Shown piece after piece: positions 10,785 to 55,640 of a DNA stretch of 64,000 bases. The position numbers and the translations under genes are program-made. Position 1 is the stretch's first letter, and each line of letters starts with the position of its first letter. The stretch covers positions 459,036 to 523,035 of the forward strand of contig QJNS01000019.1 of assembly GCA_004154925.1 (NCBI GenBank), in the 5' to 3' direction. This DNA comes from Monosporascus cannonballus. Its lineage: Eukaryota; Ascomycota; Sordariomycetes; Xylariales. Under the pieces are notes generated by a model. That model searched no databases. It was not told the origin of the DNA and was given only the letters and a program-made list of their open reading frames with translations.

Positions 10785-10843
10785 TTACCCCCTTCTTCGC
10801 CCTTAGGGAGTAACGAGGCTGCGGCGAGGCTTGCCTCATCGTG

Positions 10844-11009
10844 ATCAGGACCCCATTTTGGAGGTTGTGGCTGCGCCTGCGGCGCAGCAGCCGTAGCCAC
10901 AGCTATAGCTTTTGATCAAGAAGTATCTGTCAGGGGTCCAATGTATCAGCTAAACTCCTTTAAGAATAATACCCACAAAAACAACAAAACCTCCAAAATA
11001 GGGCCTGAT
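10844..11009. repeat. Terminal palindrome of RecQ segment copy I
   Basis: Arms 10,844-10,870 (ATCAGGACCCCATTTTGGAG and on) and 10,982-11,009 (complementary, ending GGGCCTGAT) are inverted repeats. A tight GC-rich hairpin GCTGCGCCTGCGGCGCAGC sits at 10,870-10,888. The same structure, RIP-mutated on one arm, ends copy II near 55,455-55,620. It is far less RIP-mutated than the adjoining helicase gene. Confidence 0.75.
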
Positions 11010-11629
11010 GGTAAGTTGTGATTTTTTCGTTCCGTTTGGTGCGCTCTTATACAAATTTGCAGAAATCATCAATATTAACTTTGGCAATATATATTAATTA
11101 TAAAGCTCCTAGCACTTTAACCTACATAATTTAACGCAAAATTAAAATCTTTATCTTTTAATATAATAATGGTCCTAATTAATACGAAATAAAAACTGCT
11201 ATAGTAAAAAAATGGCCCAAAATCCCGATTAGTACATATTATAACCTTTTACCCTCCTTAGGCCAGTACGATAATAATATAATCTTATAAGCCAAAATAA
11301 TAATATATAAGGTTTAAGATCGCTCGTAATAAATCCCGAAATATATTTTTTTCTTAATTAGTTAAATATAGGTAATATACTTAAAGGTTTAAGGTAAATA
11401 TTCTAAATTTTCGAGCATTTAATTTTTCAAAGCGAAATATTTATTTTTATCCGATACCTTTATTGGTTTTTTATTAATATAAACGTAATTAACTTATATG
11501 TTAATATTATGTATACGGCCGATAACCTTATAGAAATTTTGCGCCGTTAATTTATTCGCCTTATATTAAGCGTTATATTTAACAGGCAAGGCCGTATTTT
11601 ACGGAAAAAATAAGTCGATATAATATATA

Positions 11630-12253
11630 ATCTGATTTTCGGAAAACTTAATTTTTTTTTATTATTAAGATAAATTTTGGGAAACCTTTAATTATTTAAG
11701 CTTTTTTATTAATAACCGACTTAATTATTATCTAAATTGCATTATTAATTAAGTTAGCAGAAAAATAACGAACTTTTATATTAATAATTTTAAATTTTAT
11801 TTTTATCTTAATATTTGCAGATACGAAAAAGCTTAATTTAAAAATGTTTAACCGTATAACTGCTAAATAATATAATTATATTATTTTTGATTTTAAATAA
11901 ATATTGAGTAATTAATTTTAAATTGTTATATTAAATTTTATTTTCGAATAATAATATGGTTTAGTTATTATCGACGAAATATATTTATTATTAGAATAAA
12001 AAGATTTCCGGCCTAAATATATTAATATCCGCAATTTGCGTTTTATTTTCCTTGCCTATATATATTGGTTTGCATATATAACACCTGCTAATAATACTAC
12101 AGAGAAAAAAATCGCGAAATATAGCGGTTTTCGTCAAATCGGCGGCCTAACTGGATATGGTTATAAGGCGGAGGTCCGGCGTTTCAATGTTAATCGTTCC
12201 GAAATCGACATTGTTATTTTCCCCATACCCAGAGGTTAACGTTCGAATTGGGG
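11630..12253 (+). pseudogene. RecQ-like helicase pseudogene, fragment 1 (motifs I-III)
   Basis: RIP-mutated helicase core on the plus strand. Motif II reads VIIDEIYLLLE at 11,964-11,996; DEIY is what C-to-T and G-to-A changes make of DEAH. Motif III appears as ITPANNTTE near 12,075-12,100. A GKT/GKS-like motif I is probable near 11,634-11,650, about 108 codons upstream of motif II as in RecQ, though its frame is unclear. The fragment stops at 12,253, where a Gypsy element entered, and continues in frame at 19,612. Confidence 0.65.
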
Positions 12254-12459
12254 TGTAAGATAATGGATAGCTGTAAGCTGGGTGAGGTGATCTCCGACCA
12301 GTCGTAAAGCAGATTCCAAGAAGTAAGTATATTAAGTTATTTTTATCTAGCGTTTCCTACTAGCTGCCAGATAGTAGATTTATATTAATAAGTAGGTCGG
12401 TAGTTGATCGGTAACTGGTCGGCTACCAACTTTATTTTTATAAGGGCTATATTTTTATA
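12254..12459 (-). repeat. 3' LTR of Gypsy copy 1
   Basis: Starts TGTAAGATAATGG and ends in TATA (CACA in the less mutated copy at 33,427, read on the other strand). Preceded by TSD TGGGG. Confidence 0.88.
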
Positions 12460-15400
12460 ATTATTTCCTTTTTTTAAGCTATTAATCCTTAATAATATTA
12501 TTATTAATTTAATATAATATGTTTTATAAATTTAATTACGTATATTTATTAATAATTTACTATTATATTATGTTATAAATAATTGCCGTAATAATTAATA
12601 CGTATTATATTATGTAATTAATTATGTTTTACTTAATTTTTTATTATAATCCGTTTTTAATTTTACTTTATTTACCTTTTTTTTGGGCTTATATTTTTTT
12701 TTTTACGTACGCGTTTTATTTAGTTTTTCGTTTTTTTATTCTTATTTCGCCTTTTGCGTCTGTTTTACGTATTATCTTTATTCGCCATATTTTTTTTTCG
12801 TAAGGAATTCCAAAAGAAATAATATTTTAATATTAAAAAGGATTAGGATTTTTTTTAATATTATTCCTTTAACGTTAATAATAAAATAAATATTAATTAT
12901 ATTATGGATAGTAATAAATTATATTATATTTATATAATATAATATTATTTCGATTACCGTACGATTTACGTTTAAATTCCGGACGTTTTAAATTATGTCG
13001 TAATTAATTATTATTATAAATTTTTTACATAATAAATAATTATTTTTAATATTATTAATATCGTTATTTAATTTTTATTTAAATTTTAATCGTTTTTAAA
13101 AATGCCGCCTAAATAATTTTTTAATTTAATACTAATAATTAGAAATTAATCGATAAACTTAAAAAAATTCGATTTGCGAATATTTAATATAAACGTTTTA
13201 ATATAATTATAGTTAATTATTAATTTGATATTTTTCGTAAAACCGAATTTGCTCTTAATACGATTATTATTAGGGAATATCGTTTTTTTAATATAATTAA
13301 ACTTAATTTCGAATTATCCGTTATAATTATAAAAATCTAATTTTAATGCCGTTTTATAAATTTGCAAATTTAAATCTTTTTTGTAAATATTATAATTTTT
13401 TTATTTCGCGATTAATTTTCGATTAAATGCAATTTTAAGGTACCTTTATAAATAAAGTAATTTTCGAAAGTTATTATGCCGTTATATTCCCCGCTTATAA
13501 GCATTTTCCGTTCGTTTTTCGACGTTTTAACGAAATTTTGATATTTTTTAAAAATTATAATTAAAAAATAGCTTTATTTAGCAAAATTATTACTAAATTT
13601 AAACATATTAAATATTTTAAAAACAGCGCCTTATTTTCGATTAATAACAAATTATATTCTAATTATTTAAACCTTATTTTTCGTAAAAAATAAAATGTTT
13701 TTAAATTTTTTTCAGATTTTATACTTACTAAATTTAATAAATATGCTTATGTTTTGCTATTATATATTTTTCGATTATTTTCCGATATTTTTATATTAAT
13801 TTCCTTAATACGTTTATTAAAAATTAATTAACGTAAAATTTAATAATTAAATACAAAAATTTATTTTCGAAATAAAAATTTAATTTTTTTACGTTATTTA
13901 TAAGTTTTCGATTAATATATAATAAAGTAATTATTTGTTAAAGGCTTAAAAATAATTATATAATTAAATAATATTTTAATATTAATATTTTAATTTTGTT
14001 TGGAATTATTTTTTATAATTTTTATAATTAATAAGCGATTAATTTCTGATTAGGTTATTATTATTTTGCGGTTTTTAAGTCGTTTTATTTTCTATATACG
14101 TATTTAACTTTTTTCCGTAACGTTATAATATTTTAAATACGTATTCGAAATATTTTCGAGATTTTTACGTGTTATATTTAATAAATTAATTTTTTTATTT
14201 AATTAAATATTTCTATTGCCCCCGGTTATTTCGGTAACGGACGATATTTTTCATTATTCTTTTTGTTTTTTTATTAAATTTAATAATATTATTTAAACGT
14301 TATCCCATTTTCGGTTACATTACGGTTTTAATAAAAATATTAGAAATATATTATATATCCGTTAATATTTAATAAAACAACTTATTTTATACACTTAAAG
14401 ACCTATTTATTCCTTAATTATAACCCGAATATAAATAAATATAAATTTTTAATTAATAAATTTATTTATTACTTTAATTAAAAATTATAAACGTATAACA
14501 TTAATTATAATATTTTTTAAGTTATCGTTATTTTTTTTAATATTTATATATTATTCGACAAATAACCGTCATTTTTTCGAAATATTTTTTAATTCTTTAT
14601 ATTTATTTTTTAAATCTTTATAAAAAGTATTTTATTATTTTTAAATAATATTTATATAAGGTTTCGAACGAAAAACGGCGGATAAACGCGTTTTACGTAT
14701 TATTATATACGAATTCCGTATTTTGCAATAATTCTATCCAATTATCTTAATATTTATTAACGTAATTACAGAAATAATATTTTAAAACCTAATAAATATA
14801 TTCCGTTTGCTTATCGGTTTACGGATAATAAACGGTTAATATTTGCCGTTTTATTTTTTATTTTTTATAAAATTTTATCCAAAATTAATTCGTTAATAAT
14901 TTATCTTTATCGCTAATAATTCCGACTGGCGTACCGAATTTCTATTTAATTTCGTGGTAAAATAATCGGATTAATTTGGTTATAATTAAGGTTTTAACCG
15001 TAAAAATAAATAATTTTAATTTCGTAAAAAAATTAATAATTATTAGAATTATATTATATTTTAACCCGTTTAAACTTAGGCTTTTGGAAAATCCCGTAAT
15101 AAAATTTAACGAAATTTTTTAAAAGGATTGCTTAGATAACGGTAAAATCTATAATTATCCATATAATTTATAGCGTAATTTTATTATATTCTGGTAATTT
15201 GGATATTATTTAATATATTTTCGAATATTGTTCGCCATATTTTCCTAATAAAACTTTTTAATTATTAATTTTAACGTACGGATATATTTTATATATTTTG
15301 CTTTTAAATTATTATAGTATTAATTAATTAATTATTTTCGTAAAATACCTTATAACGGAATTATAAATTCATTTTAATAATATAAAACTTTATTTAAATT

Positions 15401-18400
15401 TAAAAAATATTCTTTTTTTTATTCCGGTTTAGCGTTTAATTATTTATATGAATTTTATAATATTTAAGTTCTTAATTTATAATTTTCGAACTTAATTATA
15501 AAATTATCGGAAAATTTTCGGTTAAAATGCCGTTTTGTTTTTAAATAATTTTTTTGTTAAAGGGCGTAAAATGTATTAATTATAAATAATAATTTTAATA
15601 TTAATTTTATTTTTTTTAAATTTTTCGAAATCTAATTGTAATATGGTTATAATTTGCAATTACCGTTATTTAATCGTTAATCGTATTATTATTATAATTC
15701 GCATTTATATTATTATTCGTAAATAATAAATTTGATAAATATATAATTTTTTATTTTCTTTTTTTAATTTTTTTTATAACTATATAATAAAGGTTTTTCG
15801 GTTTTTTATGCGGATAATAATTATTTAAATTTTCGCCACTTATAATTTATTTAAGAATTTTATAACGAACGTATTTTACGTTATTTTTATAAGGCCTTTT
15901 ACTTTTTTATAATATTTTAAATCGTACTATATATTTATAACTGTTTTTCGTACGTTTTCCGACATATTATTTGTAAATCCGAATTTTTTAAATAACATAA
16001 AGATTACGTTTCCATATGCAATTTTCCTTAATATATAATCCGGATATTTAAATAGCTTATTCGCCGGATTAATAATATTCGGTTAGTATTAAATCTTAAA
16101 ATCAAATTATATAAAACGGTAAACTTATCGGGTTAACTTTTTTTAAAGTTATATGTTAATGCTTTTATTATATTTTTAATGCTATATAATTAATAAATAT
16201 TAAAAAATTCTTTTCCGTACTCTTAAAGTATTATCGTTAATATTTTAAGTTTTTTATAATTGCTAATAATTTTTATTATTTTATAATTTACCGTTTTTCG
16301 ATTTAACTTAATTTTTATAATTAATATATAATTAAACGTTAATGTTTTTCGTATTTTTATAAAAATATCCCTGATATAACTTTTATTAAAACATTTATTT
16401 TAACCTTGGTATTTTTGGTATTATTTTAATATTAAAAAATGGTCGCCGATTAAAAAATATCTTTTAAGTTTTAAAATATTTTTTTAACTTTTTCGGGCTA
16501 CCGAAATTCTGTTATTTTTTCTTTTACCTTGCGCCTTTTTTAAAAGTTTAATAATAAGTTCGATAATACGTAAATAATAGGCGATAAATTTCCGATAAAA
16601 ATTTATAAATTCCAAAAATATTTAAATATTATAAATTAATTTTGGTTTTGGCCATATTTTAATAGTATTAACCCGTTAACGGTTTATTTCTAAAATATTT
16701 ATATTAATTATAAATTTTAAAACCTTTATCCTTTTTTAAAAAATTCATATTTAAATATTTTAATAAATAATTAATATTAAAATAGCCGTTCGTAAATTAA
16801 TTAAAGATATTTCGTATATTTTTTTTGTTATCCGAATAAATAATTATATTATTTAGATATATTACGTATATATAATTAATTAATTTAATTAATACTTTAT
16901 ATATATAAGCTAAAACGTAATTAACGTATTTATAAAATTAAATAATATAACCGTATATTCGAATTGCTTATATTACGTTTAAAAACGGTTTTTTATTAAA
17001 CGCTTTTTTTAATTTTAATACAATAATAAATATTTTTAAAATTAATTTTCGAATATATTTTAATTAATTTTAAGCAATTTATTATTTTTAAAATTAAGGG
17101 TAAAAGGTATTAATTCTTTATTATTACCCGATTAAACCTTTTATAATTAACGTATAATCGGAAACTGTCGTCTTTTTTAAGTACAAATAATATTAATATT
17201 TTTGCGTCCGTTTTCGAATAACGTATCCGGTTTATTTTTAGATTTTTTCGGATATATTTTTCGAATATTTTTCTTTAAGTTTTTAAAATAAGGTAAATTA
17301 GGCCGTATATAAACGTTTTCCCTGGGATTAAATTTATTGCATATTTTGCTCTTAATAATTAAAGTATTTTTTTTTATTTTTTCGAAATATATTCGCCGGA
17401 AATTCTTTAAGTATATAAAAAAATTAATTATTTTTTATTCTTATTATTTCTCGAATTCCAAAATATTTAGCTTTTCGATTAAACTTATTAAATTAATAGT
17501 ATAAATTTATTTATTAAAAAATGCTAAGTTTGCAATTTTTTATTTATTAACTTTTTATAATAATTTGTATAATTATTAATATATAATTATATTTAGCAAA
17601 ATTTTTAATTTATTTATTCCGGATTTAAATAATAAAAAATCGGGCGTTTTTCGATTACGGTATATTATAAAGTAAATTTACTTAAATTTTCGTTTATTTC
17701 CGTTATTATTTATTATGTTAATAGAAATTTCGTAAACCTTATAATATTTGATATACGTACCGTTAATACCGATAAGGCCCGGAATATTTACGGAAATTAG
17801 TTAAAAGTTAAGTTTTTTTGCTAAATTTCTGCTTATAGTATTTATCTGTGTTCCGGTATTTATGTCCATTTATATTATTACGTTTCTCGTACTTTTTTTA
17901 ATAAATGCCTTTTTTTAAAAGGCGGCTTTATTCCGACCGTTTTACAGTTATTAACCGAAATAAATTAGATATATACGTTTATTCTAGCTCCTTTTTTAGG
18001 TTTACGTTTAAGGATTGGTTTGATTTATCGTTATATATTATAACGTTTTATACGGCTTTCGGAAGTCGGTTTCCGTATAACTAGGATAATAAAGTTTTTA
18101 TATTTTTTTGAATTATAATTTATGTTTTTATAATTTAATTTTTTAAAGTTATAATATTTAAGTAGACCTTTATAAAAATTAAGGGTGTTAAATTATACGG
18201 ATTTATTCCGATCGGAATTAAATTGGCGGTTATTTACTTTCCGAATATAAAAACGCCCGTGGTTTTTATTATTTCCGTACGGCATTTTTAATTTGTTCTA
18301 GGGAAATTTTTTTCCGAAAATATTAAAATAAAATCGTTTATCCTTATTGGTATTTTTAGCGGAAAATAATCGGTTTTTTTCGTTTTTTCCAGGCGTTTTG

Positions 18401-19400
18401 GTAACGTTTTACTTTATTTGCTATGTTATTAATTCGTTTTAATTTAACGTTTTTTCGTAATAAAGTATTTCGTAACCTTAATATTAATTTGTAAAAGTAA
18501 TTAAAAGTAAAATATTTATTATTTTGATTATTTTTCGAATTAAAAACGTTCGTAAGTTTTATTTTATAAATTAAAAACTTTTATTTAATATAAAAGTTTA
18601 ATAACGATTAATCGGATCGTTATTATAATTTTATAAATTGTTTTTTATATTCCTTATTAAAAAAATTAAGATTTACGTAATTTTTCTTAATAAAAATTTA
18701 TAAGCTTTTTATTTTTAATTTTTTTCGTAATTAAAATAATTAAATATAACGTAATATAATTGCTAAATATTCGTAATAAAAACGTTTATATGGCCTATAA
18801 CCTATTAAATATAAATAAAGGTATTTTGCTTTAGCCTTTCGGCGTAAATTTCCGTAATAACTTTTATTTAATTTTTTTAATCGATATACGTTCGAAAAAT
18901 TTCGAATAATTATAATATAATATTTACTTATTGCCTTTAGGTTTTTATAACAATATTATAATCAATTTATAAAATTTTATTTTTTTAACTTATATTATTA
19001 TTTATTATTCGGTTAATTATCGGAATAATTCCGAATATTATTTATTTTATTAATAAATAATTTCCAAAATCTGGTTATTATTAAAAGGTTTAATCTTTTT
19101 TTGCTTTGAATTTCGGAACGTATTTATTATATTATACCCGTTTTCCGACCGTTTAATTAACGGTTATTAGGACGTATTCTTATTATATATATAAGGTAAT
19201 TCGGGATCTCGGAAATTATGGTTCTTTGCCCGTTAAAGTTTCGTTATAAACTTTTTCGCCTATTTCCGTACCGTAATCGATCGTTTATTAATTAGGTTCC
19301 GATCGGCAATTTTCTCGACTAATAACCTAAGTTCGTTTTGCAGTTGGCGAACTTCACTTCTGGTAGTTATCGCGTTATTTTTTATAGCAGATGGAAAAAT

Positions 19401-19606
19401 TGTAAAATAATAAATAATTATAAACTGGATAAGGTGATTTCCGACCAATCGTAAAACAGATTTTAAAAAGTAAATATATTAAGTTATTTCCATCTGGCGT
19501 TTTCTACTAACTGCCAGATGGTGGATTTATATTAATAAGTAGGTCGGTAGCTGATCGGTAGCTGGTCGGCTACCAGCCTTATCCTTATAAGGGCTGTATT
19601 CTTATA
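19401..19606 (-). repeat. 5' LTR of Gypsy copy 1
   Basis: Same 206-bp length as the left LTR, followed by TSD TAGGG. Contains a stem CCATCTGGC / GCCAGATGG and repeats of GGTAGCTG(G/A)TCGG. Confidence 0.88.
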
Positions 19607-19611
19607 TAGGG

Positions 19612-19950
19612 GTACTTAAATTTTCTAATAATTAATGCATTCGGGCCATTAAGTAATATCCTCTTAATTCAGCTTAATAACTTGCGTTCTATTACTAAAA
19701 TTATTATTTATGTTAATAACAGGGCGAAAATTATGGACATCCGTAACCATTTAATCAAGATTATAATAAACCGAGGGTATTTGTTAAAGGTTATGAAAAA
19801 AGCTATTAAGTTTTATAATTCCGAAATACCTTACGAGGACCAAATTCGCGTATATAATAACTTAAAACAATCGGATAGTTTTATTTATATTATCGTATCC
19901 ACTATTACTTTTAAATTAGGCATAGATATCCCGAATATTAATCGAACAAT
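19612..19950 (+). pseudogene. RecQ-like helicase pseudogene, fragment 2 (motifs IV-V)
   Basis: Joins fragment 1 in frame once the Gypsy element and one TSD copy are removed. Contains KIIIYVNNRAKI (motif IV), IPYEDQIRVYNNLKQSDSFI, and VSTITFKLGIDIPNINRT (motif V, usually VSTIAFGMGID). This is the best preserved part of the gene, with no stop from 19,682 to 19,950. It is interrupted at 19,950 by the next Gypsy insertion. Confidence 0.8.
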
Positions 19951-20373
19951 TGTAACGAACCTGTCATACATCCACCTGGAGGTATAAGCAGTATCCGAAA
20001 TGGGGTTTTGATTTGCAGGTAACAATAGGGCGAGAAATAATTTACTAAGGGTCTATTCGTTAAAAAGATTTAAAAACTTTTCCCTTAATTAAAGAACGGT
20101 ATAATTATCTTTAAATTAAAAGTTTAAATTAATAACTAAAAAGCGAAACTAAGTAAGTGCTATTTACATAAAAAACCGATTTATTATATATCCTGATTTT
20201 CAAAGTAAATATATCATAAATCTGTTAAATCTGTATAATCTGGTCCCCAGATTACCTAGATTAACCAGATCACCTTAAGAACCAGGCTTTCCGTCCGGAA
20301 TTTAGCCGTAACAGATCCGCGTTAGGCCTTAAAGGTTGGTTTCCTCGAAATAGGAACCCCTGTTCCTGTAACA
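19951..20373 (-). repeat. 3' LTR of chromodomain Gypsy
   Basis: 423 bp, TG...CA ends, preceded by TSD ACAAT. The first part resembles the solo LTR at 37,023. Confidence 0.9.
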
Positions 20374-20396
20374 TTATTTTCCCTTTCTAAAGATTT

Positions 20397-21190
20397 TTGT
20401 CCCTAAAGATAAGAATTGTAGGTCGCCACTTTGTTTTGTTGGAAAAAGTTGGAGATATTTTAGCTGATTTTATCATAATAGGTTGTATTCAGAAAGAAAA
20501 AAGAAAACCTCGGTTGAATCAACGCGGCTTTCGTAATACCCGTGTTAATTTAATTGAAAAATTTGGCATTAAGGCTTTTTTTTATTTGAATTGTGTCCGT
20601 TTTAACGAAACTAATTGTTTTTACGTTCCGGAATACCTAAGTTGCAGCTATTATGTCTGTCGGCAACGTCCCTCCTGTAACGTTTTAATTATAAATTCGC
20701 TGCAGAAAATAAACGAAACGCAAAACCGTTTGTTACGTGAGCAGTATGAAACTAAAAATAGTTTTTTAACATATTAAGAAGTTGCAAAAAGGGAATAAAA
20801 GGCGGTGGAAAAAAGGTTAGCCGAATTGCGCCGTTAATAGAATAAAAAGTCGAAGGAATTTGTTAGAAAACTAAGGCGCTTGTGCTTTTAATAAGACTTT
20901 TTTAAGAAAAGGGCGGTAGAGTTGTTAAAAGAAGGTTTGGAATTGGACTAGTTAGAAAAACGGGAAAAAATGGAAGAAGAGCGGCGTTACGTAAACGCAA
21001 AGCAAGTACAGTTTGCTTTTGAGATGGACGCCGTTTTGGAGGCGTTTATTTTTTTCGATTAGGACGCCGAAAGTTTGGATTTAAGCGGAAGACCGTTATC
21101 GCCTACGACCTTGGCCGTATTAAAAACGGTCGGTTAGGATTCTGGCGGTAAAACGTCTTAATTAGGTTTATCGCATTCGTTAAATGGTTA
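20397..21190 (+). pseudogene. Antisense reading frame between chromodomain and 3' LTR
   Basis: On the plus strand, opposite to gag-pol, an open frame of 126 codons (20,397-20,777) continues with RIP-type stops to about 21,190. Its later part is protein-like and charged: KRLAELRR, VRKLRRLC, ELLKEGLELD, EKMEEERRYVNAKQVQFAFE, DLSGRPLSPTTLAVLKTVG. It contains CSYYVCRQRPSCNV. It is probably an antisense accessory gene of this retrotransposon. Family not recognised. The first part may not be its true start. Confidence 0.45.
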
Positions 21191-21228
21191 AATGGTTTCT
21201 AAATATTTTTTTTATATAAGTATTTTTC

Positions 21229-24200
21229 CTATTTAATTAAGTATTGAACTTTGTTTTTAATTATTCTGGAATTTAATATTTGTTTGATTTCGTATTCGTC
21301 GGAATCTTTTTCAAATTCCAAATTTGTTTTTAACGGGGCGTTTTTGGGTATTGGTTTAAGTAAAGAAATGTGGAAAATAGGGTGTATTTTTATATTTTTG
21401 GGTAACGACAATCGGTAGTTAATTTTAGAAATGATTTTATCGACCTTGAACGGGCTAAACTTTTTAAAATCGAACTTATTATTAGGTTTTTTCGTTTTGA
21501 TTTATAAGATATTTAAGGTTGCGTTTTGTTTCTGGCGTAGTAAATAAATTTTGTTTCCTTTCGTTAAAATTAATCCCTTAATTTTTTTCTTATTATAATA
21601 TTAGGTTATACGTTATTAAAGGAATCGCAATTCGTTTTAGAAACGGGTTTGGATTATCTTGATTTTTATTGTTAATGTTTTTGCTTTTGGGGTAATTATA
21701 ATAATTTTTGGTATTTTGTTAAATAATTATTTAAATCGTTTTATTTTTATATCGTATCCGTATATAATTGTATAAGGAAATATGCTTATATTTTCGTTAA
21801 TAGATATATTATAGGCGATTTGCGCTAATAATAAAAGTTTTACCTAGTTATTTTGCTGGTAATTAATATAATTTCGAAAGTATTATTTTAAGGTTTGGTT
21901 TAGCTTTTCGGTTTAACCGTCCGTTTAAAGGTAATAAGCTGTAAAAAATTTAAGCTTAACACCAATTTATTTAAAGAAATTAGTACCAAATTTTAAAGTA
22001 AATAACGTATCTTTATCGGAAATAATCTTTTCGGATATTTTATATTTATCGAAGTAATATCTAATAAAAGCGTAAGTTAATTGTTTTGCCGTTACGTTTT
22101 TTCTGAAAAGTAAAAAGTATTTATATTTAGTAAATTTGTTAACAATTACCCATATTCCGTCGTATTCGATTTTAATAATTGGGGTTTTAAATGGAAATAA
22201 ATTAATAATGAAATCCCAAGCTATGGTATTCTATATTTTGTTAAAAATGTCGGTAGGTTGCAGTAGCCCGTAGGGCTTATGGCGTATTATTTTGGCTTTG
22301 TTGCAAATATTGCAATCCTTAATTACTTTTTTAATTATTCGTCGTAGTTCCAGAAAGTTATATTTTTCTTGAAGCCGTCTGGTGGTTTTGAAGATTTCTT
22401 GGTATTCGTATAACGGGTTTTCGTAAAATTCTTTTACAAACCGTTCCTATTGATCTTTTAGAATATAAATTTTGCCATAGTACAGTAGTTAATCCTTTAG
22501 TTATCCTTTTAGCTATTAGATCTTTTTTTATTTTTCCGTATCGTAAGAATTTCGGAATTATGTCAAAAGTTCGGATATTGGTTTTTTTACTATTTTATAT
22601 AACTGTATAATGTTATCCTGGTTATATTATAATATTTGTATATTTTTTGGGAACTTTTAAGTCGTAATCGCTTTTGCGGCTGAAAATATTTGCCTGGATA
22701 TTTTTTTTCCCTTTAATATAATGTATTTTGAAGTTAAATCTTATTAAGAAAATTATTTAAGTTTTATGTTTTTTAATTTAATTCTTATGCTTTCATAAAT
22801 CGGGTAAAGTTTTTATAATCGGAGTAAATGTCGAAAAGTTTTTTTATTCCGTTAAGGAAAAGTTCTTATTCTTTAAGAGCTTTGACGATAGCCAGCAACT
22901 TTTCGTTGTAAATCGGGTATTTAAGTTCTGTATTTCGGAATGTTTTTAAGTAATATGCCACTGGGTACCATTTGCCGTTATTTTTTTAACTGTTTTAGAA
23001 CGGCTTTTAATACGTAATCTAAAGCATCCGTCTTTAGGCATTTTCTTTTATCGGCGTTAGGTAATTTTATTATGGGTCCGTTAGTAATCGCATCTTTTAA
23101 GATTTAAAACGTTTTCTTTGCTTTTTCGGGGAGTTTAAATTCCTTTCTTATATATTCTTTAGTAATAAGTTTCGTTAATGGCCTAATTATATCTCCGTAT
23201 CCCTTAATTAGGCCGCGTACGTAACTCGTAAATCCTAAGATTTGCCGGATATTTATAACGGTCGTCTTATTAGAGATAAGCCAGTTTTTAACTGCTTCTA
23301 TCTTAAAGCGTTAAATCTGGATTTGGCCGAAGGTAAGAGTATATCCTAAAAAGTCCAGTTTTTATATATGCCATATGCTTTTGGCTGGGTTAATTCGGAT
23401 GTTTACTTCGTTTAGCGTTTGGAGTACATGGGCGATTTGCTTCCTGTGCTTTTCGAAAATCTCAGAGTAAATAAGGATGTCGTCGAGATAAACGAATATA
23501 AATTTATCCAGAAATTTTCTGAAAATGGTTATAATTAAGCGTTGGAAATTAGCGGGAGCATTAGTAAATCCTATAGGCATTATTTTGTATTCGTAAAATC
23601 CGTATATTGTTCTAAATGCCGTTTTCCATTTTTTTCCTTTGGTTATTTTGATACGGTAATAACCGTTTTGAAGATTAAGTACGGTAAATTATTTAACTTT
23701 GCTAACGTTTTCTTTTAACGTATTTATAAGAATTAAAGGATATCCATTTTTGATTATGATATGGTTTAGCTGTTTGTAGTTAATTATTTTTCTAAAAACC
23801 AGATCTTCGTTTTCGTTAATTTTTTGCTTTCCATCTTTGATTTTTAGTATTATAAGGACGGGGTATCCAGCGGGAGAATCAAAGGGTTGGATATATCCTC
23901 TTTTTAGGTCAAGTTAAATGCTTTTCCATAAAGCTTTCGACTTGTTGGAATTTATGTAATAAATTTTGTGAAGTTTAGGATAATGTTTTTTTAATAGGTA
24001 TTTTATGATTTTATTAACTATGTAATAATAGCTTATAGTCTTTTTTGTCCTTAAATAGTTTTTTAAATTGTCGATATTCAGGTAATATTGTGAAGGTTTG
24101 ATTTGCAATCTGGATTTCCTTGACGATATAACAGATTTTTTGGTTTTTTCCTTTGGGTGGCTTATTTTCTTATAAAAACGTCTGATATTTCCAGTTAATA

Positions 24201-43871: not shown

Positions 43872-45055
43872 TAGGAACTCTGCCTACTGATATTCACTCA
43901 CCACGCGCCGCCAATGACAGAGCGCTGTGTCGCGCTGGATGGCGCTCCCGATTCTGTGAGGTGTTCGTAATTCGTACGTGAGAATTGCGTGTGATTGCTG
44001 CGATTGGCAGATGGAGCGATGTGTGCGAGGGACAAATAAGGAAGAGATCCGGTCCGTGTTCGTGATAAGTTTGAGCTTCATATCTAACGTTAGAATACGC
44101 AGTACTTGGTAGGTAACGGACATAAACCCTAAATATCGTTTTACAATTTTACATATAGCCGCTTTGACTATAACGAATTGAAGCGGCTCTGGAACAAAAT
44201 ACTCCGCGATTTTTGTAAGTATATAGGGCGCAATTCATTTCACTCCGCCGCTCCGAGGTTGCTCGGTCTTCAAAATCCCGGGACCCTTTAACAACAACCT
44301 TCACCCCACTTCATTCCCTATCGACCGCCCAGCGCCGCCCTAGTGCGGATTCGGCCCTGGCGCACACTCCCAGCCAGCTCCAGCTTCGAGCCAATCACCG
44401 CCGGGACGGACGAAGCTCCCCCCCGGACCGGCCATGTTGGCTCTTTTTTCACTAGCATCAGTAACCCTAATCCTTACCCGTGCTGGCAGCTTCATCTATC
44501 CACGGCGACGGTTCTTTACTGTGGTAATCCGTATACACGCGTGTACAACCTATCACCACGTGCGTTGGTCATGACGTGGATAGCACTTGGAATATACAAA
44601 GTTGGAAGGGGGCAGCATATTCTGCCGAAGAGTTACACATATGCAAATTTACGACCGTGATCTACGAAGTTATTAAGTGTCTATCTACCTGACCAGTTGC
44701 GCAACACGTGCAATCGTGCATAAGAGGCGCTCGACTGGTAGGATTTTTAGGGATATGCTTGCTACAATAGCTTTCCTAGGCTCTCTCTGAGGGCGCAGGA
44801 TCGAGATTGGATATGTCTGGATTTGTTAAAAGCTGCAGCAACATGTGCATATCAATTCCCGAATAGGACGTTTAGCGATCAGCTCAAGACACTAAAATCG
44901 ACGCTACTAAGCAGTCGACGTCGGCTTATGTAACATACGAGCCCTAATTCTATGCATACAATACCTACTACCTTGAACGTACCTTACCTCAGCTAGCTCA
45001 GGCCTCCCTGGCTCGTTTTCCCAATTTCTTCAAAGTTACTCAAATACCGCTCCAT
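43872..45055. other. Normal-GC island between two RIP-mutated blocks
   Basis: About 1.2 kb of ordinary composition. A TATA-like GTATATAGGG at about 44,219-44,228 is followed by pyrimidine-rich sequence. No ORF with recognisable motifs was found (the longest, 105 codons at 44,343-44,660, is not convincing). It may be the original unique DNA, with the remains of a promoter or truncated gene. Confidence 0.4.
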
Positions 45056-48000
45056 AACATTAAATATTAATTAATCAAATCCCAAATCCCCGTAACGAAT
45101 TAATACGGCCTAAGTTACAATTACGTAAAAATAATTTCGTTTAATATATTTATTTTTCTAAAAAAACGAAAATCCGTAATAATTTAATAACAAAACGTTT
45201 TTTTAAATATATATATATATATATATATTGTTATTTTTATTTTGGCTTATTATTAATATTACTTTAATTTTAATTAAAATTAATTTGTTATTTTTAAATT
45301 TTAATATATATAATAATTATAATTCGAACCAGTTACATTATTATTCTTTTTTTAAAATATAATAAATTCAATTTTTTTTTAATTTTACCGGATTACATTT
45401 TTAAAATAAAATATACGTATATATATTTTAAATTTTTGGTATTAATATAAAAAAATTAATATAATATTTAAGAATTTTATGTGTAATTAATTTTTTTATA
45501 ATAATTTAAATTAAATTATTAATTCGATTATTCGGGTTAATTAATTAATTAATATTTTTAAAAAAATAAATATACGAAAAATTATTAATATATAAAAATT
45601 CATAAAACTTTTTAATTTCGGTTAATTAAAATCCCATTATACGTAAATATTATAATATATTATACGAAAAACTTATAATTATTATAAAAAAACTTAAATT
45701 TTATTATTTATTGGAAAAAATATTATTCGAAATTAAAATAATTTATATTATTTTAAATAAAAATTAGTATTTTACAAAAATATTTACTTTTAATTAATTT
45801 AAATTTTTAAATTAAAAAATTATATATTTTTTAAAAAATAATAATTATATAATATAAAACGAAAAACGAAATGGTTTCGTAATAATAATAATTCGAATAT
45901 TTATATATATATTTTATGATTTTAATTATTATAATTAGAATAATTTTTAAAGTTTACGGCAATTACTTATCTTATTTATTAAGCAAATTTTTGTTATTTG
46001 CAAATTTATTATAAAATAATATCGATATATTAAAAAGGTTAAATATTTACAAAAATTATTTTATATTAAATAAAAATATAATTTAATTAGTAAAAAATAA
46101 TTATAATAATTTTAATATTTAAAATTATGTTTATAATATAATGCTTTAATATAATATTATTATACAAAATATTATTACCGTTTTTATCCGTTATTATAAT
46201 CGTATTTTTTTTAAAAAAAAAATTAAAATAATTTATATTTTGGTTTAATTAATATTATAAAATAAAATAATTTTATAAAACGTTATAATAATATTTAATA
46301 TTATTTAATATTTTTTATTAATTCGTAATTAATATACTCCGAATTTTATTTTTTATTTTTATTAATATATTTTATAAATATAATAAATAAAAATTTTCCG
46401 GTTTTTTTAAATTAAAACGTATTCCGTATAATAAATATTATTTAATTTCGTTAAATATAATTAATAAAAATAAAGGTATTATTAACGGTATTTATAATAT
46501 TTATCGAAAACTTTTTTAAAAAATATATAAATTTAAAAGTTTTTTTTATTAATTTTCGAAATATTTTAATTATATTTATAAAAATGAAAAAATAATTAAT
46601 TATATTTGGTAAATATAGGCCAATTAAGCCGAAATAACCGATTTATACGATAAAAAACGATAATTTGTTTATTTTTATTTTATTTTATATATAAATAAAT
46701 TTGTTATTTATATTTATACGTATTTATTGGCCGATAATATAACCGGGACATATAAAATATAAATAATTTTAAATACAAATTGTTAAGTTTTTAATAAAAT
46801 AATATAATTATATTAAAAATTATCAAAATTTTATTTTTTTAAAATTTTTATTTTATATATATATAATATTTATATACTTACGTTATTTTTGCAAAAATTA
46901 CGTACTCGATACGAATTATTTATAATAAATGCGTTTAATGTATATAAAGTTTTTCGGAATATTTTAATCGAAACCCTTTTTTCAAAAACTGAATTTACCG
47001 AATTTATAAAATATATATATTTCTGATTACCTATTACCGAATTTGAATTTATCGCATATAAAATAATTTATAAATATTTTAATTATATTAAATAAATAAA
47101 GGAAATAATATAAAATCTTAATTAAAACGTATTAATAAATAAGAATTTTTTAACGAAACTCTTCTGTTATTATTTATTAATAATATATTATTTAATAATA
47201 TAAATAATTTAACGAATAATTCGTAAATATTTTTTTAATTTAAAAATATAATTTATTTATATTACTTTTTAAATAATACGGTTTTAATTAAAACGTATCG
47301 AATAAAGCTTTTTTATCGGATAATTATAAAATTAAAAATAATAATCAACCGTTTCTCGATATTATTTTTATTAATAAAAAATTTCGAAATTATTATTATT
47401 TTGTTAAAAAACTTAAGTTTATTTATATTTTTTATATATTATATAATATAGCGATATTAATTATATGAAATAATTAATATCGATATTATTAGTTTTTTTA
47501 TAAAATCGGTTAATTTAATTACGGTAAAAAATTATTATATTTCGATTAAATATTTCGTTTTGCAATATTAAATCAAATATTTATTAAATCGATTTTAATA
47601 TTAAATTTAATTCTAATAAAATGCAAGGAAATAATATAAAAATTATTTAATCGAAAAGGTAAATATTATAATTTATAATTTATTAACGAATTCCGCCGGT
47701 CGAAAAATAATATATATAATATTAATATTATTTTTTTTCGAAATTCGTTTTTAATTAAATATTATATATCTTTATAATGCCAATTTTATGCCCATTATAT
47801 TTTTTTGCAAAATAAACGTTACGTTATTTGGAATTTTCGTAACGAAATCCTTAAACGCGTTTATTTTTTTGCTTCGAAATTTTTGACTTATTAAAAGATA
47901 TGCGTTTCGGATTTAAAAGGACGTCTAAAATTTTACAAATATTTTGGCCGTAAGTCGTAAAATTATAAAAATTAAATGTATTAATTTTAATAATACCATA

Positions 48001-50196
48001 CTTAATATTAACGATATAAATAAATTTAATTAATTAAATACACCAAAAAGTAAAAATTAACTTATTAATAATTTTAATATAATTACCCCAAACGTTTTTA
48101 ATACCGAATTTATTAAAAAATAATTTTGTTCCGGATAACTGTAATATTTTGCATATAAAAAATTATAATTTTATAATACATATTATTAATAATTTAATTA
48201 ATAATTTAAATTAAAACGGTTCGTTTTTGTCGTTGTTATTATTAAATAAATAAAATAAAGATTTATTAAACGAAAATAAACCGTTAATATAATTTTTTAC
48301 TTTTTTATTACTTTATATTTTTTACAACTAATATAATGTTTATATTATAATTTTAATATTAATATAACTTTATTATTTGCGTAATTTTAATTAATCAATT
48401 TCGGGATTATTTTATATATTATCGTAATTATTTAATTATTATATTAATATAATTTATTTACTATTAGTAATAAAATTATAAATACAAAAATAATATTTTA
48501 TGATTCGATATATAATATAATTATTAAGGAAATTAATATAAATAATTAAGTTTATACTTTATGTAATTTTAATTAATTATATTCTATTTAAACGTTTTAT
48601 TTTTCGTAAAATTATATTAAAATATTATATTATATATAATTCAATATAACGTATAATTTTGGATTAACCCGTATATCTTTTTTATAATTAATTTATTAAT
48701 TAATATTTTTAAATATTTTCTGAAATCTGTTTTTCGTTTTACCTTTTTTCGCGCGTTATTATAACTTATATATTAATAACTTCTTTTATATTTTTAGGAT
48801 TTAAAATCTTATTCGTTTTAAGCGTAATATTTACGTTTAAATTTTTTTAAAATGTTTTATTCAAATTATATAATAATTTTAAATATTTAAAAATTACGTA
48901 TAAATAATTTTCGTTACGTTTTTATACGTAACTTACATATTTATTACCTATATAATTCCGTAAATTATAATATTTCTAAAATAATTATATAATATATATT
49001 TCTTAATTAGGCGGCCTGGTTTATAAAATTATAAACTTTTTTTATATTATTTATATAATATTTAATTTATATAATTTCTTTAATAAATTATAAAAACCGT
49101 AATGAATTAAAAATCCATAATTAATTTAATAATTTAATAAGTTATAAGGCCAGTATAATCCGTTATAACGTAAATTCTATTTTGTCGATTATTATAATAG
49201 AAAATATCCCGAATTATATTATTAATATTTAATATTTATATAAATATCGTATTTTTCCGTAATAAAAAATCTTATTTATAATATAAACCTTTTGTAATAT
49301 TATCGAATCTATAAATTTTTAATAATTATAAGATTCTCTTAATTAATATATATTCGTATTAATATTAAAACATAAAATATTTATTTTTGTTTTTAATTTT
49401 TTATTATATTACTATAATTTTATAATATGTATTTAATATTTAAAATTAGTTACGTATAATATATATTTTCCATAAAAATATTTTATATCTTAAGATAATT
49501 AAATATTATTTAATTAATACGAAAATATTTTAATTAGGATTACGTTATTACTTTCGCCTTATCGCAAATTATTTTAATATTAGTTTTGATTATTTTTTAA
49601 TTAAAAATTTTATTACCCGTTTTTAAAATTATTTTTCGGAAGCAAATTATTTTTGTTTTAATATTTATTTCGGTTATTTTTTGGTTCGAAATTTTATTAT
49701 CAGTTTTTTAGGTTATTTTTCAAAGATAAATTATTTTTCGGTAATAAATTATTTTTCGAGAATATTATTAATAAATTTAATTTTTTTAACCGAGCGAATA
49801 AGTTTTTTTTAAGTTTATTTAAAATATATTATTAAAAGTTATAACGAAAATTACCTTTGTTATATCGGCAGAAAATTTATTTACCCTTTATAATATCGTA
49901 AAATATATAAAGATATATATTATAATATAAATTTCGGATATTAAGTAAAAAAAATTAATTAATAATTATTACATCGTAAATAACTTAATTTTATATATTA
50001 AAATATAATAAATATTTGAAATTATAAAAATCTTTAGTTAAATAAATAATATTAATTATATGTTAAATAATTATAATAATTATATTTAATACAAATACAT
50101 TCATAATAAATTTATAAATTATATGAAAAATTATATAATAAAATATAAATTTTGTATAATTTATATATAATTATTTTATTATAAAAAATAATGTTA
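45056..50196. other. Extremely AT-rich, RIP-degraded tract of unknown origin
   Basis: About 5.1 kb with stops in every frame. It is likely repeat-derived because of the RIP-like composition. I could not find LTRs, terminal inverted repeats or a recognisable protein. An (AT)n run lies at about 45,210-45,230. It may be a further part of the RecQ segment not present in copy I, or another element. Confidence 0.4.
49572..49741. repeat. Two tandem ~85-bp units, diverged by transitions
   Basis: Units 49,572-49,655 and 49,656-49,741 both begin TTTTAATATT and end in AAATTATTTTT(C)G. Most differences are C/T or G/A. A partial third unit (AAATTATTTTTCGAG) follows. Confidence 0.5.
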
Positions 50197-51359
50197 ATTT
50201 TTTTATTTATATTTAATAACTTATATAAATTTAATAATTTATATATTAATAATTATATATATTATTTTAAAATATTTTTTAATTTATTAATTATCTGTAA
50301 ATTTTATTTATATAGTATAAATTTTTATATATTTCTTATTTAAATTAATAATATATTTGGTAATTATTTAATATATAAATTTTATTTTATTTATTATATT
50401 TATATTTTTAGTTATATTTTTAATTTTAATTAAACGAAATTTACATCGGTAAACCTATAATATTATTAAATCTTTTAATTATAATTATCTATTTATATAT
50501 ATTTAATATTATTTAATTATTATAATAATATTATTATTATTTAATCAAATAAAATACGGTAATTATATTTAGAAAATATATAACGATTTAACAAAAAAAT
50601 AAAATATATATAAAAATTATAATAATATTAAATTAATTACAGCGTTATTTTCCGTATTTTATTTTTTATTATATATATTATTTTTTTAAATCTTATTTTA
50701 ATTTCCAAAATAAAGTGTTCTTAAGTTAAATAATTATTTAATAAAATTTTACTATTATAAAATCCTTATAAAGTAAATTTTATTACAATATATTAAAAAA
50801 CGTAAATTATTTACCGTTATATATATATTAATATATATTTTATTTAGGACAATTTCGCAATAATATTTAAATAAATATTCTGGAACTTTAATTATTTATA
50901 TATAATTTATAAAAAGTTAATAAAAATATATTTATATATTTTAATAATTTTTAAACCTTATTTTTATTAGATTTCAAAAGATTTATTAAATAATGTATAA
51001 TATTATTCGTTTTGTTTTCTTATATTAAAATATAATAATAAAATTATAGATACGGATAATACGAATTATTAAAGAATAGGTTTTTAAAATCGCAAAATAA
51101 ACGTTTTTTATATTATAAATTTAACCGGCGTATATTTTTTTTAAAAAACGGTATAATTTAGACCGTTAGCCGTTTTCGGGAATTTATAATTTATAATAAT
51201 TTATATAATATAAATAATATTAAAAATATGACAATTTTGTGGTTTTAATTAGGAAAATTATAAAACTGTAATATATCTTATAATATATATTATATAAACG
51301 TTATTTTTATAATATTAAAGGAAAGAAAAATCCGAAATTTTACGTAATTAATTATTAAA

Positions 51360-51720
51360 AAAATAAATTTATATAAAGATTAAATTTTTAAGTATTATGG
51401 CATATTCGGTATTAATATTAAGGATTTTGGCGGTTACTCGGAATATTTAACTATTATTATACTTATGTAAAATCCTGATATAAAGCAATTTCTAAAACCA
51501 GCCGAAGACCTAATTACGCCGACAAAGGGAAAACGCAACAAAGGAAAAAAAGCCAAATCCGGCCGTCGACTTTTATTAAGGGAATTAAAAATTTTCAATT
51601 CGAAAAAAAAAACAATTACTAAAATTTATAATAAAATAATAATAAAATATATAAGCGGTTTCGAAAAATATTAATTAAAATCGTACGTCAATAACTACTA
51701 ATCTTAATTATAAGAAAAAT
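51360..51720 (+). pseudogene. ORF2 of the RecQ segment, copy II
   Basis: Plus-strand homologue of 29,590-29,960 (minus). Contains GINIKDFGGYSEY and a basic run similar to KGKRNKGKKAKSGRR, then KIFNSKKK. Unknown product; see copy I. Confidence 0.4.
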
Positions 51721-53099
51721 AAAATTATAAAATATAATTAATAAGGATTTATTATAAACCCGGAATTTTAAACATTTCGAGTTAATATTTAAAAAACAAA
51801 ATAAACGCCGGAATAATTACATTAATAACGAAAAAATAATTTTCTTAATATTAACGAAAAATTATTTATATTATGTATTTACCTATATAATTAATTATTT
51901 ATTTTAATTATTCGACCCGAATTAAGGTATTTTAAAAATTGAAAAAAGAAATAAAAGTATTTTAAGAATTAACATAATAATTTCAAAAAAACGGAAAATA
52001 AAATTTAAAAAACTTTAATTTAATATTATAAATTAAAGACTAAAAATTAAAAAAATGATTTATTAATAATTATAATAAATTATATTTTAAATTATATAAT
52101 ATAAAATTCCGTTAATTCTTTTAATTGAAAAAAATCTATTAAATATTTATTACAATATATAATTAATACGAATTAAAATAAATGAATATTTTATATAAAA
52201 TTTACTAAATTAAGAATTTAAAAAAATACTAAATTTAATAAATTTTATAATATATTAATAATTTTAATTTATATTATATAAATACTTGTAATTATTACGT
52301 TTTATAATTATAACGTTATATTAAAACCAAACGCGTTTTTTATTATCGGTTTTAATTAAAACCGATAAAAATTAGTTTTTTATTTTTTAACTTAATATCG
52401 TAATTATTTTTTAATTTATTATTAATATTATTATTTAATAAATACCATTTATTTTTAATACGAAATTTTTTAATATCGATAAGATTTATTAATTTGATTT
52501 TTTTCCGATATATTATTTATAATATTAGGTTACAAATTACTACGTTTTAATAATACCGGCGACTTCGATACTAATATAAAAATAAACGAATTATACAAAT
52601 ATAAATATAATAACGAAAATAAGGCTAAAAATTAAAAATATTTCAAAATAATAAATTTTACGCTAACGTTATAAATTAAAAAAATAAAGTAAATTTTTAT
52701 TTAAAATTACTTAATATATTATAAATAACGTATATAAATATAAATATTATTATAACTAAAATTATAATTTTAAATTATAAAAATATATAAATTATATATA
52801 AATTTAATATATAAATTATTAAGATTATCGTTAAACCGTTAATTATAAATTTAAACCGAATAATTATATACGATATATTTTAATTAAAATAAAATATAAT
52901 TTAAAACGGATGTATAATTTTTTTAATATTTGTTAAATTTATAACGTAATAATAATTTATAATTTATATAAATCGGTTTATAATATGGAAATATAACGCC
53001 GTTATTTCCGATTAAACGAATTTCGTTATTTCCGAAAAATTATTTATATTTTTTATAAAATCGAAAATATAATTTTTTGTATATTATATATAATATAAA

Positions 53100-55000
53100 A
53101 AATAATTTCTTTTTTAAAATATCTTAATATTATTATTTATTAAAATTAAAAACCGTTGTAATTAATTCGATTATATTTTAAATTAAATATAAACCTTTAA
53201 TTTTATTTAATTTATTTGAAAATTTATTAAATAAACGCTATTTAAATTTAATAAAAATAAATATTTATTTTGTTTTTTTACCACCAAACAAAAATAATTA
53301 CATAAAAAATAATTCATTCGCCTGTTATTTATATTAAAACTTTATTATTTCCCAAATCACCGCCTTTATCGAATCGGTTTTTAATTATTTTATGCAAATA
53401 TTTTCGAATTTAAAAATTTAGATATATCAAGGAAATTAAGCGTATATATATTATAATAAAATTTAGACGAAATTAAATTATTACGGTTTTTTTCTAATAT
53501 AATAATTTTATTTTTTTTAAATATATTAAAATCGCTTTATGTATATATTTGCCGTTAAATAACGCATATTATTAAGGCTTTAGTTTTATCCGATATCGTA
53601 AATTAAAATTATTTTATTTCAAAAATTTACAAATAATATTATAACCGGTTAAAAATTAAAATTAAAATTTAATAATTATTTTATTTCAATTAAAATTATT
53701 CGTAATAAATTATATATTATTTTTTTATTATCTGAATTTATTATATTACTTTTTATTATAACTTTTATATTTTTATAAATAATACGGTTTTTCGTTTATC
53801 GGATTTAAATTGTTTTCATTATTATAATTTTCTTAAAATAAATAATTTAATTCTGTATTTATTAAATAATTAATAAAATATAAATAATATAATTTATTTA
53901 TAATTAATTATATTTAAGCGCTTATAATTATAAAATATTTAAATAAATTATTATTATAAAATTTTAATTGAAACATTTTGTTATATATTTTATTATATTA
54001 TTTAATTAATATTCCGAATATTTATATTTAATTTAACAATAATAAAAAATATAAGAATATAAATAAAATTATTTAATTATTTTTAATTATTATATATTCA
54101 AATTTTATTTCAGTAAATTATTTAGAAATTATAAAATTTAATAATTTTTTATAACTTTTAATAAATATCCTTAATTTATTATAATTTTAATTAAATAATT
54201 ACAGATATTTACAATTTTTATTTTATTGTTAATATAAATAATAATTTTAATAATAAAATATAAATTATTAAATTAAATTAAGAATATTAATTCATAATTT
54301 GGATATATTAATTATTAAAAGATTTAAATATTTTTAATTTAACCGTTAATTTTTAAATATAAGGAAAATAATATTATTCATTTCGGAACGATTAATATTA
54401 AAATATTAAATTTTCGCTTTATGATTATGTTTAATTAAATTATTAATTTAACGAAAACCGTTATATTTCGCAATTTCTTTTATAATATTATTAATAATTA
54501 TTATACACATATATTAATATATTTAAATCCGAAATTCTCTTTCAATAACAAATATATTTCGTTAATAATAATTAAATTATATTATTATATAAAAACAAAA
54601 TTTAATATAATAATTTAAAATTATAAATATTATAATTAAATTATTTAATAATTATATAATTAAATATTTTTAAATTAAGTTTTTATATATTTATAAAATA
54701 TAAAATTATTAATATAAAAAATTATTTTTTTAATTAACTTAATTAATCATATAACGTAAATAATAATTAAATTAATTATTAATACAAAAAAATTAAAATC
54801 ATTAAGAATTTTTTAACATTTATTTTAATAATAAAAAAATATTAAATTTTTTGAAAATTAAATTATATATCGTATTAATTTCTTTTTCCGTAAAATATAA
54901 TATTATTTATTAAATATAATATTAAATATAAGGCGAATAAATCGATAATATAAAATTTTTATAAGATTATCAGCCGTATATATAATATTGATATATAGGT
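53100..55000 (-). pseudogene. RecQ-like helicase pseudogene of copy II
   Basis: Minus-strand homologue of the three fragments in copy I. Motif II region at about 54,552-54,563 reads NEIY (from DEAH) and is preceded and followed by sequence alignable with 11,940-12,030. More heavily RIP-mutated than copy I, with few long open stretches. Limits are approximate. Confidence 0.5.
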
Positions 55001-55640
55001 TAATTACGTTTATATTAATAAAAAACCAGTAAAAATATTAAATAAAAATAAATATTTTGCTTTAAAAAATAAAATATATAAAATTTTAAAATATTTATTT
55101 TAAAATTTTAAATATATTACCCGTATCTAGCTAATTGAAAAAATATATATTTCGAGATTTATTATAAACGACTTTAAAGTTTATATATTATTATTATATT
55201 AATTTTAAAAAATAAAAAATTATAATATATATTAATCGAAATTTTGAAGTATTTTTTATTTAATATTTTTTATTTTATATTAATTAAAATTATTCTTATA
55301 TTAACAAATAAAAATTTTAATTTTTTATTAAATTATACAGGTTAAAATATTAAAAGTTTTGTAATTAATATATATTACTAAAATTCATATTAATAATTTT
55401 TGCGAATTTATATAAAATATATTAAACGGAATTAAAAAATCATAATTTGTTATTAAGCTTTATTTTAAAGGTTTTATTATTTTTGTAGGTATTATTTTTA
55501 AAGGAATTTAGCTGATATATTGGACCTCTGACAAATATTTCTTGATCAAAAGCTATAGCTGTGATTATGGCTGCTGCGCCGCAGGCGCAGCCACAACCTC
55601 CAAAATGGAGTCCTGATCACGATGAGGCAAAATGCACCTA

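What the first reader, a model, noticed from the sequence alone, without database searches (positions are those of the whole stretch)
10831..55630. Two inverted copies of a RecQ-helicase-bearing segment with a palindromic end
Sequence shows two ~5.5-kb homologous segments in opposite orientation (10,831-31,134 less two nested elements; 50,197-55,630). Both carry a RecQ-like helicase (DEAH-derived motif II, STITFKLGID motif V, QFGRAVR motif VI), a convergent ORF2, and one GC-rich end formed by a ~166-bp palindrome with the hairpin GCTGCGCCTGCGGCGCAGC. Flanks differ outside the shared end, and copy I sits inside a Gypsy element, so the segment appears to have moved. It has no RT, no DDE transposase and no Rep/Pif1 helicase that I can see. 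Fungal RecQ genes of this kind are often subtelomeric (telomere-linked helicases). Either this is an undescribed mobile element using a RecQ helicase, or it is a copied subtelomeric gene block.
Basis: partly seen in the sequence, partly recalled or inferred. Interest (0 to 1): 0.88.

Follow-up and report, generated by a model that had tools for sequence, protein, structure and literature searches.

The report
RecQ-carrying DNA transposon in a fungus
The repeated segment is one end of a large, mutation-ruined jumping gene, present in hundreds of copies in this fungal genome, that carries a DNA-unwinding enzyme (RecQ helicase) and leaves the footprint of cut-and-paste insertion.

Summary
The two ~5.5-kb inverted segments are real, but they are the right half of a longer unit. 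The complete copy is window 44984-55630 (10,647 bp). It has sharp ends, imperfect terminal inverted repeats (TTACCTCA...; 14 of 19 bp in this copy) and an 8-bp target-site duplication, found in 12 of 14 loci whose two flanks could be read and in 4 of 4 shorter (~2.38-kb) copies with the same ends. The left end occurs 332 times in the 88.8-Mb genome, the reversed control 0 times. Copies are dispersed, not confined to telomeres. So it is a high-copy TIR DNA transposon, not a subtelomeric gene block. The RecQ helicase is confirmed (Pfam Helicase_C 4.9e-6; NCBIfam RecQ 7.7e-4) and pairs with a left-half coding region at fixed spacing (67 pairs). All copies that I read are heavily degraded, with a RIP signature. 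The transposase was not identified; RIP reversal, which could name it, was left out and referred. The 8-bp duplication does not fit KolobokH (RecQ; TTAA) or Helitrons. Verdict: new variant of a known kind, a RecQ-bearing TIR transposon of unassigned superfamily.

The parts
44984..55630 (+). Complete copy of the transposon (10,647 bp; right end = the end with the hairpin)
   Evidence: Left end seen in 12 loci and 332 pattern hits; right end shared by 21 of 22 copies
44976..44983 (.). Left target-site duplication AACGTACC
   Evidence: 6 of 8 identical to 55631-55638, the two differences being transitions
55631..55638 (.). Right target-site duplication AATGCACC
44984..45002 (+). Left terminal inverted repeat TTACCTCAGCTAGCTCAGG
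   Evidence: 14 of 19 identical to this copy's right TIR (counted), 16 of 19 to the GATCAAGATGAGGTAA form of other copies
55612..55630 (-). Right terminal inverted repeat TTGCCTCATCGTGATCAGG
55573..55591 (+). Subterminal hairpin: arms 55573-55580 and 55584-55591, 3-nt loop, 39 bp from the right end
   Evidence: exact in 16 of 22 copies
53920..54600 (-). RecQ-like helicase core (motifs II to VI) of the full copy, broken by stops; limits approximate, the ORF extends beyond
   Evidence: Homologous to copy I around 11950-12028, 19616-19942 and 27340 onward
50507..51687 (+). Second coding region (ORF2, convergent with the helicase), broken by stops; limits approximate; lysine-rich piece at 51471-51671
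   Evidence: Stop-free pieces in the + strand recur across copies (12 of 22 copies viewed); no Pfam match above chance
45820..48926 (.). Left-half coding region(s), strand not settled; no known domain
   Evidence: Conserved piece in 150 scored places; one + frame has the fewest fixed stops, a weak sign; no Pfam match above chance
10831..31134 (-). Copy I: right end at 10831, interrupted by LTR-bounded insertions (~12254-19606, ~19948-27289), left half missing
   Evidence: weaker, AT-rich similarity to other copies continues to about 31320-31424
19610..19948 (+). RecQ helicase C-terminal lobe piece (113 aa, motifs IV-V) in copy I
   Evidence: Pfam Helicase_C E 4.9e-6; NCBIfam RecQ 7.7e-4; best PDB chain is RecQ but at E 0.11, not significant

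Best explanation
It is a high-copy TIR (class II) DNA transposon family of a filamentous fungus, about 10.65 kb long, that carries a RecQ-like helicase on one strand, a convergent second ORF and at least one further coding region in the left half. Shown: shared ends, TIRs, 8-bp TSDs, short copies with the same ends, dispersal, RIP-type decay. Inferred: an element-encoded DDE-type transposase, hidden in ORF2 or the left half, pairs the two ends, excises the element and inserts it through an 8-bp staggered cut. The ~2.38-kb copies would be internal deletions moved in trans through the same ends. The RecQ helicase would be an accessory that opens or processes DNA during excision, gap repair or replication-coupled copying. 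RIP then mutated the copies.
For: Sharp right end in 21 of 22 copies; left end alike in 12 loci, 11 of them chosen because their match began there, and 332 times genome-wide with up to 3 mismatches, 0 for the reversed pattern. 8-bp TSD at 6 or more of 8 positions in 12 of 14 readable loci (nine perfect), against 4 of 182 cross-pairs; 4 of 4 ~2.38-kb copies have TSDs, three perfect and one 7 of 8. Helicase piece in 150 scored places of 463 candidates, left-half piece in 150 of 319; 67 pairs on opposite strands 6.9-7.7 kb apart, 0 on the same strand. RIP substrate index 0.54 in the element against 1.12 and 1.11 in the gene-rich ends of the window; transitions to transversions 4.6 and 3.9 in the two alignments.
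Against: No transposase domain was recognised; PDB profile searches gave chance hits or nothing. The helicase is the only domain found. Two of 14 readable loci lack a TSD (C62, whose left flank is another copy, and C334), and four more could not be read by the patterns. Whether the helicase is needed for movement is untested.
Confidence: 0.82

Rival explanations
1. Non-autonomous passenger: a 10.65-kb element that captured a host or subtelomeric RecQ gene between TIRs and is moved by the transposase of another family.
For: No transposase recognised in it; short ~2.38-kb copies with TSDs suggest that the ends suffice in cis.
Against: A unit with at least three coding regions recurs at constant spacing (67 module pairs), more than captured cargo would need; weak evidence.
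Confidence: 0.2
2. A KolobokH element: fungal DNA transposon with a DDE transposase and a RecQ helicase.
For: RecQ helicase in a fungal DNA transposon, as described for KolobokH in PMC9587614 (passages read).
Against: Kolobok is said to make TTAA 4-bp TSDs and to have 5'-RR..YY-3' termini (PMC9587614 passages; KolobokP there shows 3-5 bp; the TSD of KolobokH itself was not in the passages). Here TSDs are 8 bp of mixed sequence and the termini are TT..AA.
Confidence: 0.03
3. A subtelomeric telomere-linked helicase block copied between chromosome ends.
For: Fungal subtelomeric RecQ genes are common; Colletotrichum higginsianum has 11.3-18.5-kb subtelomeric repeats with helicase and DUF3505 domains (PMC5576322 passages). 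Some copies here do lie near telomeric arrays: C342 at about 7 kb, C378 at about 22-36 kb.
Against: 332 left ends against telomeric arrays on 15 contigs; of 42 left ends on contigs of known length only 2 lie within 20 kb of a contig end, 6.0 expected if uniform; insertion-specific TSDs. The one OrsD (PF12013) place found lies in a locus whose OrsD part shows no similarity to the element.
Confidence: 0.02
4. A Helitron (rolling-circle) element with a 3' hairpin.
For: Subterminal hairpin 39 bp from one end, like Fusarium FoHeli1/2, whose hairpin lies 38-51 bp from the 3' end (PMC5148889 passages); a helicase is encoded.
Against: 8-bp TSDs are present, which Helitrons do not make (PMC4522978 passage). 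The helicase is RecQ-like and no Rep was seen, though pieces are degraded.
Confidence: 0.01

Closest known systems
KolobokH DNA transposons (fungi)
   Same: Fungal DNA transposon with a RecQ helicase (PMC9587614, passages)
   Different: Kolobok: TTAA 4-bp TSD and RR..YY termini; here 8-bp TSD and TT..AA termini. There the helicase is downstream of the transposase; here it is convergent with ORF2
Kolobok-1_CCri (red alga)
   Same: RecQ helicase on the complementary strand (PMC9587614, passage)
   Different: Kolobok superfamily; a red alga
AcademH
   Same: Helicase-encoding DNA transposon found in fungi (named in PMC10799480, passages; the original paper is not held)
   Different: Academ TSD of 3-4 bp is recalled, not checked; relation of the helicases not tested
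Zisupton/KDZ and hAT superfamilies
   Same: 8-bp TSDs (PMC12730594, passages)
   Different: KDZ domain: no match in the genome, but no control rang either. hAT dimer domain: 16 places, none inside an element copy that I could place by eye from partial lists
Subtelomeric telomere-linked RecQ helicases
   Same: Repeated RecQ helicase genes, some RIP-affected (PMC3017866, PMC5576322, PMC4522978 passages)
   Different: Those sit at chromosome ends; these are dispersed with TSDs

Membership tests
TIR (class II) DNA transposon | Terminal inverted repeats at fixed ends | tested here: met
   14 of 19 bp in the window copy, 16 of 19 with the other right-end form; ends shared
TIR (class II) DNA transposon | Target-site duplication of fixed length | tested here: met
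   8 bp in 12 of 14 readable loci and 4 of 4 short copies
TIR (class II) DNA transposon | DDE transposase encoded | tested here: inconclusive
   Degraded pieces match no family above chance; RIP can hide it
KolobokH | RecQ helicase | tested here: met
KolobokH | TTAA 4-bp TSD | tested here: not met
   8-bp TSDs
KolobokH | 5'-RR..YY-3' termini | tested here: not met
   5'-TT..AA-3'
Helitron | No TSD, no TIR | tested here: not met
   TSDs and TIRs present
Helitron | Rep/HUH nuclease | tested here: inconclusive
   None matched, pieces too degraded
Telomere-linked helicase | Location at chromosome ends | tested here: not met
   Dispersed, although a few copies are near telomeric arrays
hAT | 8-bp TSD | tested here: met
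hAT | hAT dimerisation domain | tested here: inconclusive
   16 places in the genome, none inside a copy placed by eye from partial lists; RIP could hide it
Zisupton/KDZ | 8-bp TSD | tested here: met
Zisupton/KDZ | KDZ transposase domain | tested here: inconclusive
   No match in the genome, and no control genome rang
AcademH | Academ transposase and Academ-type TSD | not tested
   Original paper not held

The most novel reading that the evidence does not exclude
A previously undescribed lineage, perhaps its own superfamily, of large TIR transposons with 8-bp TSDs and TTACCTCA ends, in which a RecQ helicase is an integral, conserved component beside at least two proteins of unknown kind; some 'subtelomeric RecQ' genes of fungi could be relics of such elements stranded near telomeres.
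Probability: 0.35. Interest if true: 0.75.

Novelty: new variant of a known kind. Interest (0 to 1): 0.52.

Why it matters
RecQ-bearing repeats in RIP-active fungi have been filed as transposon remnants or subtelomeric genes (PMC3017866, passages) or coded as Helitrons (PMC5576322, passages). Here one such family is shown by its ends and TSDs to be a TIR transposon with 332 left ends, at most about 3.5 Mb or 4% of the genome if all were full length. That gives an exact boundary and TSD test for other such repeats, and makes it testable whether fungal subtelomeric RecQ genes descend from transposons and what a RecQ helicase does for an element that moves by its inverted ends.

Tried and rejected
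Subtelomeric block: rejected for the family. Helitron, from the 3' hairpin: rejected by TSDs. KolobokH: rejected by TSD and termini. OrsD/RecQ architecture as in the C. higginsianum subtelomeric repeat: one OrsD place found (2 candidates scored); its locus L059 has only AT-rich similarity to the element (blastn without low-complexity filter, best E 1.2e-17, all outside the OrsD part). Homolog search in the large protein collection: 75 candidates, none at E 0.01. Domain scans of stop-free pieces: 77 of 622 pieces of 45 aa or more, then 10, 10 and 7 (NCBIfam); only the helicase scored above chance, the other hits having E 0.033 or worse. KDZ and hAT domains genome-wide: no KDZ match (no control rang either), no hAT match inside a placed copy. 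PDB profile searches with three piece alignments: chance hits or nothing. Coding-strand test by codon phase of transversions: no clear periodicity, so the strand of the left-half region stays open. The 166-bp palindrome: not supported.
Full report
Observation. Window self-comparison confirms the inverted homologous pair: 10831-31134, minus two LTR-bounded insertions, against 50197-55630; the three long pieces are 74-78% identical. The window belongs to an 88.8-Mb, 618-contig genome. The segment 50197-55630 finds 230 matches in it (1332 candidates, 24 scored); 18 listed matches, the window's own included, cover about 99% or more of the segment.

True boundaries. Aligned right ends of 22 copies stop at the same base in 21, followed by unrelated flanks; L023 stops 13 bp short. 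To the left, homology does not stop at 50197: 21 copies align well beyond it. A search with 44300-50300 lists 26 other places at length; in 18 the match begins at query 681-685, i.e. window 44980-44984, and in the other 8 further in. The left ends of 11 of those 18 and of the window copy were read: all 12 start TTACCTCAGCTAG, and 11 continue CTCAGG (L040 has CTGAG). The unit is therefore 44984-55630, 10,647 bp.

Ends and target sites. The termini are imperfect inverted repeats: 14 of 19 in the window copy (counted), 16 of 19 against the right-end form of several other copies. In the window the motif is found at 44984, 55612-55630 and 10831 only, with 0.01 expected. Both ends were sought in 18 loci, picked because both ends had matches or were expected from the spacing; 14 had both 8-bp flanks readable by pattern. 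In 12 of these the flanks agree at 6 or more of 8 positions (nine at 8, two at 7, the window copy at 6 with two transitions); C62 and C334 do not. Cross-pairs of different loci reach 6 in 4 of 182. The other four were C533 and C345 (right end not found), C242 (contig ends) and C597 (pattern missed); C597 shows GATCCAAC on both sides by eye. In C62 and C533 the left flank is another copy of the element. In four further loci the two ends lie ~2.38 kb apart; all four have TSDs, three perfect and one 7 of 8. These are probably internal-deletion derivatives, but their interiors could not be read.

Copy number and dispersal. The 32-base left end occurs 174 + 158 = 332 times with up to 3 mismatches; the reversed control occurs 0 times. 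At full length this would be about 3.5 Mb, an upper bound. Telomeric arrays were found on 15 contigs (59 hits; reversed control 3). Of 42 left ends on contigs whose length I knew (a subset), 2 lie within 20 kb of a contig end, where 6.0 are expected for uniform placement. Some copies are near telomeric arrays (a left-half piece on C342 about 7 kb away, pieces on C378 at about 22 and 36 kb). The family is not confined to chromosome ends.

Coding content. The RecQ-like helicase is on the minus strand of the element. The 113-aa piece 19610-19948 hits Pfam Helicase_C at 4.9e-6, over its cut-off, and NCBIfam RecQ at 7.7e-4, far under that model's full-length cut-off; the best PDB chain is RecQ at E 0.11, not significant. 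A RecQ-type IIDE...DFRPKY stretch and QFGRAVR are visible in copy I. The piece matched in all 150 scored places of 463 candidates. A left-half piece likewise matched in 150 scored places of 319 candidates. 67 of the 150 helicase hits have a left-half hit on the opposite strand 6.9-7.7 kb away, 9 have one at 13.7-19.6 kb and 74 have none within 20 kb (both lists are capped); no same-strand pair has the 6.9-7.7-kb spacing. A second region (ORF2, + strand, about 50507-51687) keeps one frame in the 12 of 22 copies viewed and has a lysine-rich stretch. None of the non-helicase pieces matched a known domain above chance, so the transposase is inferred, not shown.

Decay. The element has 13% G+C against 53 and 58% in the gene-rich ends of the window; the RIP substrate index is 0.54 against 1.12 and 1.11, with the AT-rich DNA next to the element in between (0.84 and 0.68). 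Transitions exceed transversions 4.6 and 3.9 to 1, summed over pairs of copies, in the two alignments. No clear codon-phase signal remains, as expected for copies that decayed without selection after insertion.

How it most likely works. The TIRs, the 8-bp duplication and short copies with the same ends are the marks of a DDE transposase acting on both ends. I place that enzyme in ORF2 or the left half (inferred). RecQ would then be an accessory, as in KolobokH (PMC9587614, passages read). The alternative that another element's transposase moves this family cannot be excluded.

Comparison with the literature. Ten searches were run, and passages of PMC10799480, PMC5576322, PMC5148889, PMC3017866, PMC4522978, PMC9587614, PMC10045372, PMC12730594 and PMC7473861 were read. 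None of what I saw describes a RecQ-bearing TIR transposon with 8-bp TSDs. The AcademH paper is not held and Repbase could not be searched, so prior description there is possible. The nearest described kind is KolobokH, which this fails on TSD and termini as given for Kolobok.

Noticed in passing
window 44984-45083 and 55511-55630: The outer ~100 bp at each end keep 39-48% G+C, and the 40 best-scored matches there are 93-97% identical, while the whole element is at 13% G+C and interior matches at about 75-81%: RIP seems to spare the termini.
   Followed up: partly
16 TSD loci: The TSD base next to the left TIR is C or G in 15 of 16 loci, a possible target preference.
   Followed up: no
L059 (C555:637500-643500): The one OrsD (PF12013) place found in the genome, E 2.7e-12, one stop inside, in GC-rich DNA; its OrsD part is not similar to the element.
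   Followed up: partly
window 12254-19606, 19948-27289, 33422-41267: Three LTR-bounded, AT-rich elements; the first two interrupt copy I. Their class was not tested.
   Followed up: no
window 10636-10784 and 42258-42406: Direct repeats of 149 bp (86%) just outside copy I and beyond the third LTR element; origin unexplained.
   Followed up: no
window 8172-9755: Cytochrome P450 gene on the minus strand with an open frame of 527 aa (Pfam 1.4e-80) in the gene-rich left part.
   Followed up: no
G000:C281:26731-26931: A hAT-dimer match inside an 858-aa open frame, the best hAT match in the genome; a possibly intact hAT element.
   Followed up: no
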